The notes under the pieces were generated by a model. That model had not been told where the DNA came from. It made no database searches and saw nothing but the letters and a program-made list of their open reading frames with translations. This document shows, in pieces, positions 11,389 to 40,590 of a stretch of DNA of 64,000 nucleotides; position 1 is the first letter of the stretch; each line of letters starts with the position of its first letter. Source of the stretch: Rugalucina vietnamica (Eukaryota > Mollusca > Bivalvia > Lucinida > Lucinidae); contig OZ024872.1 in the NCBI GenBank assembly GCA_964017185.1, positions 41,422,188 through 41,486,187 on the forward strand, read 5' to 3'. The translations under genes were made by a program, and so were the position numbers.

Positions 11389-12890
11389 ATGTTCGAAGCC
11401 CCTTTTGTCAGATCCGCGCTCAGATGTAGGAGCAAACGCTTTCTTCATAATTTTAGTTGTCGATGGAAGTTCTATGCCCACTTAAACGATTTACCTGTTA
11501 AGTTTTCTGTTTCTGTCAATGAAGGCCAAGACAGGCTTCCTACGATGTATTGGTTACCTAAGCTTCGCAAAAGACCATACAAAGCTAGATTTATTGCAAA
11601 TTCTAGCTCTTGTACTACTACTGAACTTTCTAAATTATTAACTTCCTGTCTTACTGCTATCAAATCTCATGTTATAAGATACTGTGAGACAGTGTATGAA
11701 ACTTCAAATAAAAATTGGTTTTGGTCAATAAAAAATTCTGGTGAGGTGCTCAATAAATTGAAGTGTAGAGGGTTCCGTGCGACGAGCTTGTCCACATATG
11801 ATTTTTCTACTCTGTATACAACTTTACCACATAATCTAATTAAAGAAAAACTTCTGGATTTGATAGAGTGGACCTTCAAAAGGGCATTAAAAAACTATGG
11901 TTCACTTTATTTGGCATGTAATGACAGAAAGGCTTTTTTTCACTTCCTCTGACCAAAGTCGGTATACACTTTGGTCATGTCAGAATGTGTGCGACGCCTT
12001 ATCCTATCTCCTGGATAATATTTATATTAGATTTGGGACCAAGTTATACAGCCAAATTGTTGGAATTCCGATGGGTACAAATTGTGCACCTCTCGTAGCT
12101 GATTTATTTCTATACTGCTACGAAAGAGATTTTATGGATTCTCTTAACCATGATAATCAAGCTGATGTTATCGAGGCTTTTAATTCCACTTCTCGACTTC
12201 TAGGTACCTTGATGACCTTTTGAAGATTGACAACCCTTATTTTGAAGGTATGGTCAATCAAATTTATCCATCTGAACTACAGTTGAACAAAGCCAATATC
12301 TCGGATACCGAAGCCCCCTTTTTAGATCTACATCTTTCTGTTGCAAATGGATTTGTTTCTTCTAAAATTTATGATAAGCGCGATGACTTTGATTTTGATA
12401 TAGTAAATTTTCCGTTTTTGGATGGTGACGTTCCTCGTCGTGCTTCTTATGGTGTATACATTTCGCAACTTATTAGGTTTGCTAGAGTTACAGACTTCAA
12501 CGCTCGAAATAAATGTTTAACGGCCAAACTTCTCCAACAGGGCTATCGGTATCATAAACTTCGAAAAACCTTTTCTAAATTTTATCGTAGACACTATGAA
12601 TTGATTTCCAAATATAATGTTGGATTTAAGACGCTTTTAAGTGAGGGCCTTTCGGAACCAGAATTTTATGGTGACTTGGTTTACAAATTTAAGAAACTTA
12701 CAGGAAGTAATGATTTTTCTTTTCAGTTTAGAAAATCATAACACGTTACAGACGTATAGGTTATAACTTGAATGTTATGCGACAGTCTGCATGCTTAGTT
12801 TTTAACCCAGTCACGGTTGATAACTATGCTGCCTTCTTTAATTGCACGCCGGTGGGTCGGGAGTCAGACTCTATGATGGCCCCGACTTAA
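11389..12890 (+). pseudogene. Reverse transcriptase of Penelope-like element, frameshifted
   Basis: RNA-dependent DNA polymerase of the element. Motif A reads YDFSTLYTTLPH (near 11797), motif B GIPMGTNCAPLVADLF (near 12060) and motif C YLDD (near 12205). Three lesions are visible. A 7-T run at 11934-11940 (6 in the other copy) shifts frame after NDRKAFF. An extra CGACTTCT-type duplication just before YLDD shifts it again. A further shift occurs near 12735, after which the frame continues through NPVTVDNYAAFFNCTPVGRE to a stop at 12888-12890. The copy at 21807-22490 helps define the original frame. It is not functional as it stands. Confidence 0.85.
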
Positions 12891-13162
12891 AGCTATTCAT
12901 TTTAGTTGGTTGGGGCCGGAGCCTCTTGTCTGTTGCTTGGCCAACCGGGGTCCAACTGATGTTTTTCTTTTGCTCCGGAGTTAGTAAGTTATTCGGCGCC
13001 CAGGGATCTCCATCGTCGGGCAGCTTACTCAATCTGTGAGTCCTGGTTTTTGATTCATCAGGATGTTTATCATTTTATTTGTTTGTTCTTGATGATTCAT
13101 TGACTAGTTAGAGATTCACCACGAGGACCGAAGAACTAACTAAATGTTATGAACCACTGCAG

Positions 13163-13921
13163 AGAGACATTGATCGTTTAGGCAGTTGGGCTAGGAAATG
13201 GGGAATGAGATTTCAACCCGTCAAATGCAACATGATGCAGCTGACAAATAAACGGTCTAGTAAGATACAGGCTGACTACACCCTTGAGGGCACTGTACTG
13301 GAAAACGTTGAAAGCATAAAATACCTGGGTGTAACTATCACAAATGATTTGAAATGGAATTCTCATATTTCCAATGTTTGTACAAAGGCTAACAGAACTC
13401 TCGGATTCTTGAGGAGAAATTTGTATTCTTGTCCCCCAGATGTGAAAGAAGCAGCTTATAAAGGACTGGTGCGGCCGGTCTTGGAATATGGAAGCTCAGT
13501 TTGGGACCCTCACACTCATGGCCTCCAGGAAGAACTGGAAAAGGTCCAAAATCGTGCGGCAAGGTTTGTGACGGGAAATTATGTTTTTGAAACTGGGAGC
13601 ATGACTGGCATTTTAGGTCAACTGAAATGGGAATCTCTTAAGAAAAGGAGGAAGGATAGTAGACTTATATTGCTATACAAAGGTCTAAAGGGTAAAGCCA
13701 GAATACCCACAGATGACCTTATCCCAAAGAATAGGCGTTGTAGAAATCAACACTCTTTGGCTTTTCAGATACCTTCAGCTAGCAAAGAAGCATACAAAAG
13801 TAGTTTCTTTCCACAGACTATCAGGGACTGGAATGACCTCCCTGATTCACTTATCTCCTCTGCTGAAATGTCTGATGACTGTGTGTCCAAGTTCGCTTCA
13901 CTCGTGCGTTCAAGGGACTAA
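13163..13921 (+). CDS. C-terminal part of LINE reverse transcriptase (5'-truncated)
   Basis: An open frame runs from the truncation point to the TAA at 13919-13921, including the methionine at 13205. It starts inside the RT thumb region (RDIDRLGSWARKWGMRFQ, the usual W..KW.M.FN..KC block), followed by YLGVTI.DLKW..HI and the jockey/CR1-type LVRPVLEYGSSVWDP, KVQNRAARFV and RDWNDLP blocks. The catalytic YxDD and the endonuclease are absent because of the truncation, so it has no independent activity. There are no internal stops, which suggests recent insertion. The start is not a real translation start. Confidence 0.85.
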   Translation, partial: RDIDRLGSWARKWGMRFQPVKCNMMQLTNKRSSKIQADYTLEGTVLENVESIKYLGVTITNDLKWNSHISNVCTKANRTLGFLRRNLYSCPPDVKEAAYKGLVRPVLEYGSSVWDPHTHGLQEELEKVQNRAARFVTGNYVFETGSMTGILGQLKWESLKKRRKDSRLILLYKGLKGKARIPTDDLIPKNRRCRNQHSLAFQIPSASKEAYKSSFFPQTIRDWNDLPDSLISSAEMSDDCVSKFASLVRSRD

Positions 13922-28191: not shown

Positions 28192-28239
<48 letters not shown>

Positions 28240-28287
28240 AAACTGAGATCCGTAAGAGCAGTGAGCATATTAATGAGAAAAGAGATG

Positions 28288-28329
28288 GGCCATACCGCGG
28301 TTTCGGCTAATTAAGCTTCTTCAGTGACC
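28288..28329 (-). ncRNA. Hammerhead-ribozyme motif (type I), slightly degenerate
   Basis: On the minus strand: stem I GGTCA, core CTGAAGA, stem II (GCT/AGC, with an A.C mismatch at the first pair), GAAA, stem III ACC-GC-GGT, cleavage-site A, then stem I partner TGGCC (one G.U pair). Core nucleotides C3, U4, G5, A6, G8, A9, G12, A13 and A14 are all present. Activity may be reduced by the stem II mismatch. Confidence 0.75.
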
Positions 28330-28664
28330 CTTTAGATTTGACAAATTACGCCAAAGACAAATACTAAAATTTTGCGTTTTTCAACAGGATAGTCGTCGAT
28401 ACAAAGACTGGCATGATCCAAACAGAACCAAATATATAAAACGATGGTTAGAAAATGAATCTAAACCGATAATGAATTTCTGATTTCACAGATCCTCTAC
28501 CTGATCTCAAAGGACCAAAAGGAAAATATAATCTGCACTATGGATTATGTACGGGGAGACTTTTTAGGGCCGCCACACGACACAAGACCAGCTGCAGCAA
28601 TAGCTTACATCAATAAAATTGAGATCCTTTATGAGCAGTAAGCATATTAATTAGAAAAGAGATG

Positions 28665-28706
28665 GGCCATACCGCGGTTTCGGCTACTTAAGCTACTTCA
28701 GTGACC
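28665..28706 (-). ncRNA. Hammerhead-ribozyme motif (type I), core mutated
   Basis: Same layout as the 28288 copy, but the core reads CTGAAGT, so invariant A9 is U. GAAACCGCGGTA and both stem I strands are kept. Probably inactive. Confidence 0.7.
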
Positions 28707-29155
28707 CTTTTGATTTGGTAAATGGAGCCAAAGACAAATACTGAAATTTTGCGACTTTCAACAGGATAGTCGTCGATACAAAGACTGGCATGATCCAAAC
28801 AGAACCAAATATATAAAACGTTGGTTAGAAAATGAATCTAAACCGATAATGAATTTCTGAATGCTCAAAATACCCTCGCCGATCTCAAAGGAGTTATTCA
28901 GACAATGAAAAATGTGAATAAGTCAATGCGTTTGGAATAGGACATGTCCTATTCTCAAACAAGGTTCATGAAGCTCCAAAAAGCTCTATGGAAGGACTAC
29001 GAGTAAATCTTGGCAGATAATCCAAGGTCTATAGAGCAAAGATCCATGTGGCCTGTTTTTAACGAAGAGCACTTACCTGGGAGCATGTGATCACGCAAGA
29101 GTGGAAATGAGATAAAGTAACAGCGAAACAAAATGTACAAACTCACCAAATATAT

Positions 29156-33678: not shown

Positions 33679-34092
33679 TTCTTTATCTATTTACTTTGTC
33701 TCCATTGTTGTGCTCACCGTATTTGCTTTAGTTTGATGCTAGTCACGTGGACAAAGTGCTGGGAAAGTTCGGTCCATCTACTCGTCATACATATAATTCT
33801 ATTTTCTGTCAAATGCCGTTCTCTGCTTTGTTTCTAATTTAGTTCTATTTTTTTCCAGGACCGACGGAAAGTTGACGACCAAAATCTACTTTAAACCTTC
33901 CAACCGTACGGGTAACATCGATACGAAGTTATTATTGTTATGTAAAATATAAATTTTTCATGTAGTGCGATATGGAATCTAGAACGGTACGGCTTAGCAA
34001 CACCTATATACCTAGATATTACTCGTAACACAAGAAAAATGACAGTGAAATGCGGAGAGATAAGTTTTTAAATCAATAAATTGATACATAAA

Positions 34093-35376
34093 ATGGATAA
34101 TACAGCGGACGTTAGCATGGAGCTTAATATAGAGAAGAAAGAAAAGCTGAACCAGCTGCTTGAAGAATTACATGATAAAGCTGCAATTGACTACAATAAC
34201 ACAGAGATCAAAGACATTGAATCTGCCGTGCATGAGATGATGTGGAAGATTGCAGAAGGGATAAACAAACATGGTCATTTTAAGATTTCTCGTCTTCAAG
34301 CTTGTGGAAGTATGGCGGAAAAGGTGTCGGTATGGAAACACCTCAAGTGTGGCGAGGAATGTGATGGGCTGAAAGAAGATGACGCGTTTATCGAATTTGA
34401 CTTTTTGCCCATTTTAGGTGAATTCAGTGACGAGAACACTGAAAGCGGGTGTCCTGAATGTGTAGAAGTAAATATGCCTGAGCTATTCAAAATTATAAGG
34501 ACAGGAGAAACCCCATTGTATGATGAATATGACTTGAAAAGTCAGGTTTTTGAAGAAGGGATAGCTAGTGCTGGGTCTCTGTTTGAATGTATCCTCCCAG
34601 ACATGCCTGATTCAAGCAGTGTTACTTTTAAACATAATTCTAGTCTTTGTGTTCGTGAGTGTTGCGTAGTCAGAGATACTGGTGAATTGCAGCTGAATTC
34701 TGTGATTCCTATAAAGCCCTTTGGCCAAAATGGCCAAACACCAGCGAAATGTTCTTTAATACTGCAGTGGAAAAGTAAAGCTGGTTCTTTAAAGGCTCCT
34801 AACGCTTTATACACTCAATCACGGGAAATTCAAGTACTGCCAATTTTCATCGACTTTGTACCGGCTTTGGAAAGCCCAGATACACATAAAGGTGATAATG
34901 GATATGAATATGAGATATTCGTAATTCCAAAGTCATGCAACTTCTGTAAAATCATTTCCACGATATGGAAAAGATCAATGTTTTTGTCAGAAATTCATAC
35001 TGTAGCCAATGAAATGACGAACAAGCATCGGAAGTGTTACCGAATAATCAAGCTTCTTCTGGAAGTGATGGACGACACGATTGTTAACTACTCATTCATT
35101 GACCAGTATCATGTCAAAACTGTTGTCCTTCACCATAACAGAACGTGCTTGGATACCTCAGACAAGGTAGCAAACTGTGTATTGCAAATATTTCGAGAGC
35201 TAATACATGCACACAAAACAGAGATTTTGAAATCCTTTCATTCTGTTAAGAGATTTAGATTTCTCGATATTAGAATGTCTGGTGCCTACAGCTCATACCT
35301 TGAGAAGTTGTGTTCTGTAAGCACGAATGACTCTTTGGATACATTTGTTAATAAAATCAAAGCATGTTCTATATAA
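34093..35376 (+). CDS. Mab-21/cGAS-like nucleotidyltransferase (cGLR candidate) 2
   Basis: 427 residues in one exon. The ATG at 34093 (AAAATGG) is chosen because the longer frame starts only with TTG, and because this aligns with paralogue 1. Landmarks: GS at 72-73 in CGSMAEKVSVWKHL, E101 and D103 in AFIEFDF, D254 in PIFIDFVPALES, and the Mab-21 helix segment SEIHTVANEMTNKHRKCYRI at 299-318. The catalytic triad is intact and the spacing matches paralogue 1, so it is predicted to be an active nucleotidyltransferase of the cGAS-like receptor type. The cGAS zinc ribbon is not evident. The strongest divergence from paralogue 1 is at residues about 110-175 and 260-290. An acceptor TTTTTTTCCAG ending at 33858 suggests an upstream UTR exon. 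Confidence 0.88.
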   Translation: MDNTADVSMELNIEKKEKLNQLLEELHDKAAIDYNNTEIKDIESAVHEMMWKIAEGINKHGHFKISRLQACGSMAEKVSVWKHLKCGEECDGLKEDDAFIEFDFLPILGEFSDENTESGCPECVEVNMPELFKIIRTGETPLYDEYDLKSQVFEEGIASAGSLFECILPDMPDSSSVTFKHNSSLCVRECCVVRDTGELQLNSVIPIKPFGQNGQTPAKCSLILQWKSKAGSLKAPNALYTQSREIQVLPIFIDFVPALESPDTHKGDNGYEYEIFVIPKSCNFCKIISTIWKRSMFLSEIHTVANEMTNKHRKCYRIIKLLLEVMDDTIVNYSFIDQYHVKTVVLHHNRTCLDTSDKVANCVLQIFRELIHAHKTEILKSFHSVKRFRFLDIRMSGAYSSYLEKLCSVSTNDSLDTFVNKIKACSI

Positions 35377-40098: not shown

Positions 40099-40327
40099 GA
40101 TTTCCTATAACTAACTTGGATGTGTGTGTGAAGCATGATAAACTTATATTTAAACGATCAAAATGACAATCGAAAATGTGTTTTTGGAGCTCGTTTTAGA
40201 CCATGTTTTGTCATATTAAGTCACAGTTGCTAAACACTGCTGTCGCTGAAACTTCAAACTTGGACCCATTTTACATCAGGTACAATTATGTAGTCATAGT
40301 ACTTCCAGCGTTTAGTTAAAAAATAAA

Positions 40328-40590
40328 ATGAGTTCCATTAAGAACAGTGAAAACATTAATGAGAATTGGTCATACCGCGGTTTCGGCTACTCAAGCCTCG
40401 TCAGTGACCCTAACATTCTGGCAACATGAAGCCATAGAAAATACTGACTGCAATTCTAAAAAATTTAAATGGGCAATCAATCTAAATAGAGCTAAACAAT
40501 GAAAAAAATATTTTAGAACAATGTGAAATGAGTCTACCTGAACTGATAATAAATTTCTTATTTCTCATAATATTATGAACAAATATAATA
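40328..40590. mobile_element. Hammerhead repeat, single copy
   Basis: Diverged relative of the 28238 and 28614 units: GAG.TCC.TTAAGAACAGTGAAAACATTAAT, hammerhead block, then CTGATAATAAATTTCTTATTTC. It adjoins the LINE fragment that follows. Confidence 0.75.
40368..40409 (-). ncRNA. Hammerhead ribozyme (type I), intact core
   Basis: Minus-strand reading: GGTCA (stem I), CTGACGA (core, N7 = C), GGCT-TGAGT-AGCC (4-bp stem II), GAAA (core), ACC-GC-GGT (short stem III including A15.1-U16.1), A17 as cleavage-site nucleotide, then TGACC, which pairs perfectly with GGTCA. All invariant hammerhead nucleotides are present. Very short stem III is typical of metazoan and Penelope-associated type I hammerheads, which often work best as dimers (recalled knowledge). 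Cleavage is predicted between A17 and the U of TGACC. Confidence 0.85.

What the first reader, a model, noticed from the sequence alone, without database searches (positions are those of the whole stretch)
40368..40409. Intact type I hammerhead ribozyme on the minus strand
Directly visible: GGTCA-CTGACGA-[GGCT/AGCC]-GAAA-[ACC/GGT]-A-TGACC has every invariant hammerhead nucleotide plus perfectly complementary stems I and II. Such motifs with minimal stem III are known from Penelope-like elements and metazoan retrozymes. Finding one in a small repeat next to a LINE C-terminus and a Penelope-like 3' tail raises the question of which element mobilises it.
Basis: partly seen in the sequence, partly recalled or inferred. 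Interest (0 to 1): 0.86.

Follow-up and report, generated by a model that had tools for sequence, protein, structure and literature searches.

The report
Truncated retrozyme with a hammerhead ribozyme
This is a broken-off copy of a small jumping repeat whose RNA carries a self-cutting hammerhead motif; the kind is already known in animals, but the many copies in this genome show where copying back into DNA begins, which helps to test how such repeats spread.

Summary
The motif is real: 40368-40409(-) is a complete type I hammerhead core. Its family's hammerhead pattern occurs 8,632 times in the 1.09-Gb genome; the reversed pattern 0 times. The finding's copy is a 5'-truncated, 255-bp member (40319-40573) of a ~375-bp non-coding repeat; a tandem member lies at 28229-28892. 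This is an animal non-LTR retrozyme, a known kind (PMC7229834). Stem III is a palindrome and two strands are predicted to fold as a dimeric hammerhead, so a lone copy is probably weak. New detail: 55 of 63 copies end at the same T-rich tail, about 65 nt past the predicted cut, while 5' ends vary and show no surplus at the cut. Target-site duplications are absent or rare. So the ends of copies seem set by reverse transcription from an internal tail, not by the ribozyme. Penelope-like elements here carry hammerheads too, but no shared 3' end was found; the mobilising enzyme is open. No cleavage or RNA data were available.

The parts
40368..40409 (-). Type I hammerhead, complete core; predicted cut between 40373 and 40372
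40319..40573 (-). 5'-truncated single retrozyme copy, unit positions 110-371, about 69% identical to the family majority sequence, one hammerhead
   Evidence: relatives at 71-86% identity
40318..40332 (-). 3' T-rich tail of this copy (CTCATTTTATTTTTT), where family copies usually end
   Evidence: Read; family tail
28229..28892 (-). Tandem retrozyme: partial unit (from position 91) plus one full unit, about 87% identical to the majority; its tail runs into a long T run
28287..28330 (-). Hammerhead of the tandem copy; first pair of stem II is an A-C mismatch
28664..28707 (-). Second hammerhead of the tandem copy; core reads CTGAAGT, so a core base is changed

Best explanation
The site is a 5'-truncated copy of a metazoan non-LTR retrozyme, a ~375-bp non-coding repeat with a type I hammerhead. 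Proposed cycle: tandem copies are transcribed (inferred). Neighbouring hammerheads in one RNA, or in two RNAs, pair through the palindromic stem III and cut as a dimer (predicted by folding only). Monomers are ligated to circles (inferred from published work on other animals). A reverse transcriptase borrowed from an autonomous element starts at the internal T-rich tail of a circular or multi-unit RNA, about 65 nt past the cut, and stops after about 0.3 to 5 units (the ends are shown by the genomic copies; the enzyme and template form are inferred). Hence shared 3' ends, variable 5' ends, and anything from a fragment to a tandem array. The finding's copy stopped at unit position 110. With one ribozyme it can at most be cut once and cannot release a monomer.
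For: 8,632 sites against 0 for the control pattern. Unit spacing mostly 374-377 bp. 3' ends at positions 367 to 6 in 55 of 63 distinct, uncut loci (23 of 26, 17 of 18, 15 of 19), where a uniform spread gives 4%. 5' ends scattered, with 2 of 59 at 306-315 around the cut, P 0.47. Stem III octamer self-complementary in 56 of 67 sites. Two strands of the finding's hammerhead fold as the dimeric hammerhead at -33.9 kcal/mol, while one strand's best fold (-11.9) is not the catalytic one (-8.0). Covariation score 0.126 against 0.088 in shuffles, 0 of 500. Published retrozymes: 150-450 bp tandem repeats, low GC, circles, dimeric action in axolotl (PMC7229834, parts 1-4 of 6 read).
Against: No RNA or cleavage data. 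Rfam finds no hammerhead. Units within one array are on average no more alike than nearest units of other arrays (0.053 against 0.046; 13 of 48 comparisons within-array as close or closer), so copying of a single circle is not shown; L012 and L029 are exceptions. 5' ends cluster at 50-62 (9 of 37), which a circle would not predict. 8 of 63 3' ends lie elsewhere. Pair-type count not above shuffles (95 of 500); most covariation is the GC/AT difference in the palindrome, which two CpG transitions could also give. 22 of 200 random inner tetranucleotides also give the dimer fold, and 2 of 5 natural non-palindromic variants still do.
Confidence: 0.6

Rival explanations
1. The repeat is a SINE-like element copied from ordinary linear RNA that starts near unit position 53 and ends in the T-rich tail, for instance by polymerase III termination at T runs. 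The hammerhead is a passenger or only trims multimers.
For: 5' ends of 9 of 37 copies at 50-62; the interval was chosen after seeing the data, and in the later batch alone it is 3 of 18, P 0.023. The fixed tail is rich in T runs. No surplus of ends at the ribozyme cut.
Against: Many copies begin in a preceding unit and hold more than one unit, so the template often runs past the tail. No A or B box match in one unit and no tRNA in three loci. The hammerhead is conserved in structure.
Confidence: 0.25
2. Penelope-like elements mobilise the repeat, as proposed in PMC7229834 and PMC7761336.
For: 150 scored GIY-YIG matches of 451 candidates, many with long open frames. One family (964-aa frame) has the same layout: hammerhead, then a fixed 3' end downstream of the cut (33 of 40 scored places end at query 861-880, 7 run on in tandem). 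Its hammerhead and another Penelope-like variant also have palindromic stem III and fold as dimers (the scan required a palindrome, so this is no independent count).
Against: That family's copies run into (AT)n repeats in the 5 loci read (L061-L065), and two further groups end in or beside (TA)n, while one group (L044, L045, L048) does not. Retrozyme 3' flanks are mixed. No retrozyme tail within 1 mismatch in 20 Penelope-like loci downstream of the endonuclease and only short chance-level matches of the unit to 23 loci (best E 0.048).
Confidence: 0.3
3. A chance hammerhead-like sequence or an ordinary satellite without mobility.
For: No Rfam match. L003/L009 and L004 show retrozyme units inside larger tandem repeats.
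Against: 8,632 sites against 0 in the control, dispersed over the listed contigs with unrelated flanks, fixed 3' and varied 5' ends.
Confidence: 0.02

Closest known systems
Metazoan non-LTR retrozymes (PMC7229834), above all the mussel family
   Same: Small low-GC non-coding tandem repeats with a type I hammerhead; mussel units are ~350-390 bp with ~5,000 copies as stated in the paper, here ~375 bp and 8,632 pattern sites
   Different: Host unknown and mussel sequences not available for comparison. The paper's parts that I read do not describe fixed 3' ends; here they lie about 65 nt past the cut. Target-site duplications, which the paper says are larger than 4 bp when present, are absent or rare here
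Amphibian (newt, axolotl) hammerhead repeats
   Same: Weak stem III with a palindromic loop and predicted action as dimers (PMC7229834)
   Different: Stem III is an 8-base palindrome here; no activity data; no sequence comparison made
Penelope-like elements with minimal hammerheads
   Same: Type I hammerhead with short palindromic stem III, tandem copies, fixed 3' end downstream of the cut
   Different: The repeat codes for nothing long (longest stop-free stretch 57 codons in a doubled unit) and does not share their 3' sequence or (TA)n targets
Schistosome SINE-like and W-element repeats with hammerheads (PMC8490949, passages; its reference list names the Sj-alpha elements)
   Same: Non-coding repeats with hammerheads that appear mobile
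   Different: No sequence comparison was made

Membership tests
Metazoan non-LTR retrozyme | Type I hammerhead core with stems I and II | tested here: met
   no Rfam support
Metazoan non-LTR retrozyme | Small repeats of about 150-450 bp, dimers to multimers | tested here: met
   Unit ~375 bp, tandem arrays up to about 5 units; the finding's own copy is a single fragment
Metazoan non-LTR retrozyme | Low GC, no long open frame | tested here: met
   GC 39% in one unit, 31% in the finding's copy; longest stop-free stretch 57 codons
Metazoan non-LTR retrozyme | Target-site duplications longer than 4 bp when present | tested here: inconclusive
   7 bp or more in 4 of 47 copies against 2.5% of 2,162 swapped pairs, P 0.03; 25 copies mean 3.8 against 3.27
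Metazoan non-LTR retrozyme | Self-cleavage and circular RNA in tissue | not testable with these tools
   Needs RNA and bench assays
Penelope-like element | Own reverse transcriptase with GIY-YIG endonuclease | tested here: not met
   No long open frame in the unit
tRNA-derived SINE | tRNA-like head with polymerase III A and B boxes | tested here: not met
   No A or B box match in one unit; no tRNA in L008, L069, L012 (which runs with the bacterial setting)

The most novel reading that the evidence does not exclude
In this animal retrozyme family the ribozyme does not set the ends of integrated copies. A reverse transcriptase starts at an internal T-rich tail of a circular or multi-unit RNA and inserts copies mostly without target-site duplication, in a register about 65 nt away from the ribozyme cut. 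The enzyme would then not be one of the (TA)n-ending Penelope-like elements of this genome but another, unidentified element.
Probability: 0.35. Interest if true: 0.6.

Novelty: new member of a known kind. Interest (0 to 1): 0.42.

Why it matters
Which element mobilises animal retrozymes, and whether their circles are the copied form, is left open in the papers I read (PMC7229834, parts 1-4 of 6; PMC7761336, passages). A family with thousands of dispersed copies and readable junctions lets these questions be tested by counting ends. The counts so far put the start of copying at an internal tail away from the ribozyme cut. The case also shows that Rfam models can miss a hammerhead family with more than 8,000 pattern sites in one genome (two loci were put to Rfam besides the window).

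Tried and rejected
A LINE or other element sharing the retrozyme tail: a tail pattern with three positions that exclude the retrozyme gave 147 + 124 sites, reversed control 11 + 6; 100 were listed. Two recurrent upstream sequences looked promising; of 8 loci fetched, 7 continue alike past the tail within their group, so the tail is not their end, and the eighth (L093) is a retrozyme array. The other listed sites were not followed up. The search was narrow and does not show that no such element exists.

RNA structure as the cause of the 5'-end clusters: mean local folding energy not clearly lower (169 of 2,000 random draws as low).

Single-circle template by unit similarity: not supported on average (see evidence against).

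Naming the host: a protein search with a window ORF returned 7 proteins without names. The host stays unknown.

Rows dropped: 7 of 43 distinct hammerheads (cut at a junction or with indels). L001, L009, L019, L025 left out of the 67 sites as copies of stretches already counted. For the 3' ends: L009, L019, L025 (overlap other loci) and L013 (runs to the end of the stretch) of 30; L075, L079 of 20; L094 of 20. For the 5' ends: L085, L097, L106 of 40; in the first set 22 values were used, without L002, L003, L004, L009, L011, L013, L019, L025 and one of two copies in L018. The first set was chosen by a full-unit query and so favours long copies. For one search: 19 copies of the first set, 15 of 20 and 13 of 20 of the later batches.

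Full report
Observation. Core, stem I and stem II are complete, and a strict scan of both strands finds no second one of that quality in the window. I do not think it is a good test: Rfam is also silent on L008 and L012, which carry intact hammerheads. A model built from 33 hammerheads of other loci finds the site with 58.3 bits and two degenerate relatives at 28287-28330 and 28664-28707; the next hit has 9.3 bits. That model shows kinship, not activity.

Family. A search of the window's own genome (1.09 Gb, 47 contigs) with the tandem copy lists 91 matches; 40 of 5,180 first-look candidates were scored. A 34-place hammerhead pattern with up to 2 mismatches occurs 8,632 times, the reversed pattern never. 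Units are mostly 374-377 bp apart. The finding's copy covers unit positions 110-371 in 255 bp and is 69% identical to the majority sequence; its listed relatives are 71-86% identical. It is an older copy or of another subfamily; the CTGACGA core variant is also seen in L073, L075, L084 and L085. The youngest group is recent: for many arrays the nearest segment at another locus differs by 0-2%.

Ends of copies. Counting one last 3' end per distinct, uncut locus, 23 of 26, 17 of 18 and 15 of 19 lie at unit positions 367 to 6, together 55 of 63 (a uniform spread would give 4%). The end is the tail TTTTATTTTTATT, about 65 nt after the predicted cut between positions 310 and 311. The 5' ends scatter. 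They are not enriched at the cut (2 of 59 at 306-315, P 0.47). They cluster at 50-62 in 9 of 37 copies picked by the hammerhead pattern; that interval was chosen after seeing the data, and the later batch alone gives 3 of 18, P 0.023. Alignment edges of old copies are imprecise by some bases. Target-site duplications are absent or rare: 7 bp or more in 4 of 47 copies against 2.5% of swapped pairs. In L008 the flanks, read by eye, join in frame, leaving room for at most about 3 bp of duplication; the empty site could not be searched.

Template. Arrays of up to about five units and copies that begin in a preceding unit mean that the template often runs past the tail: a circle or a multi-unit RNA. 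Units within an array are on average no more alike than nearest units elsewhere (0.053 against 0.046, 48 comparisons), so a single circle per array is not shown; L012 and L029 fit it. The absence of ends at the cut fits both a circle and uncut RNA.

How the ribozyme may work. Stem III is a self-complementary octamer in 56 of 67 sites and, at its two free bases, in 95 of the 100 sites listed (by eye). Two RNA strands fold, as the minimum-energy pair, into the dimeric hammerhead: stem I between strands, stem II within, eight pairs of stem III between strands. This holds for the finding's sequence (-33.9 kcal/mol), both main variants and two Penelope-element hammerheads; the single retrozyme strands prefer a non-catalytic fold. 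As controls, 22 of 200 random inner tetranucleotides and 2 of 5 natural non-palindromic variants also give the dimer. Pair counts on 36 distinct hammerheads give a covariation score of 0.126 against 0.088 in shuffles (0 of 500) and at most 0.050 in slid versions, but the number of pair types is not raised (95 of 500). Most of the signal is the GC/AT difference inside the palindrome, which two CpG transitions could also produce; L012 adds a G-C to A-T change in stem II. Dimeric action is likely, not shown.

Which element moves it. Penelope-like elements are numerous (150 scored of 451 candidates). One family with a 964-aa frame has a hammerhead followed, some 140-160 nt after its cut, by a fixed 3' end (33 of 40 scored places; 7 run on in tandem), and its copies run into (AT)n in the 5 loci read. 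Two other groups also end in or beside (TA)n, one does not. The layout resembles the retrozyme's; the 3' sequence and targets do not. A narrow search for other elements with the same tail found none. The mobilising enzyme stays open.

Known or new. Small tandem repeats with type I hammerheads, their circles, and dimeric action in axolotl are described in PMC7229834 (parts 1-4 of 6 read). PMC7761336 and PMC8490949 were read in passages; other papers were seen as listings only. Two papers on minimal Penelope-element hammerheads are not held. This is a new member of a known kind, perhaps kin of the mussel family, which could not be compared. That fixed internal 3' ends are new rests on the parts read and on four library searches, so it is a weak claim.

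Noticed in passing
window 12865-12932 (+): Rfam match to a selenocysteine insertion element (SECIS_1, 38.6 bits, cut-off 35).
   Followed up: no
L051, L054-L065 (for example C15:425031-437587): Recent Penelope-like family with a 964-aa open frame, tandem copies 3,893 bp apart, a hammerhead before the frame, and 3' ends running into (AT)n; some copies carry inverted pieces ending at a second point.
   Followed up: partly
L061, also L062: An inverted repeat beside (TA)n whose arms each carry a hammerhead-like motif (TCCTG CTGAAGA ... AGCGCT A CAGGA); one arm in L062 has a changed base.
   Followed up: partly
L003/L009 (C16) and L004 (C13): Retrozyme units caught in a larger tandem repeat, with hammerheads spaced 376 and 667 bp in turn in L003/L009, and retrozyme units alternating with another sequence in L004.
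   Followed up: no
window 34072-35376 (+): ORF of 434 aa with a Mab-21 C-terminal match below the curated cut-off and 7 unnamed database relatives.
   Followed up: partly
window 13112-13921 (+): ORF with a weak reverse transcriptase match below the cut-off.
   Followed up: no
L018 to L030 and listing: Many tail sites have unrelated upstream sequence, as if very short retrozyme fragments that begin inside the tail were common.
   Followed up: no
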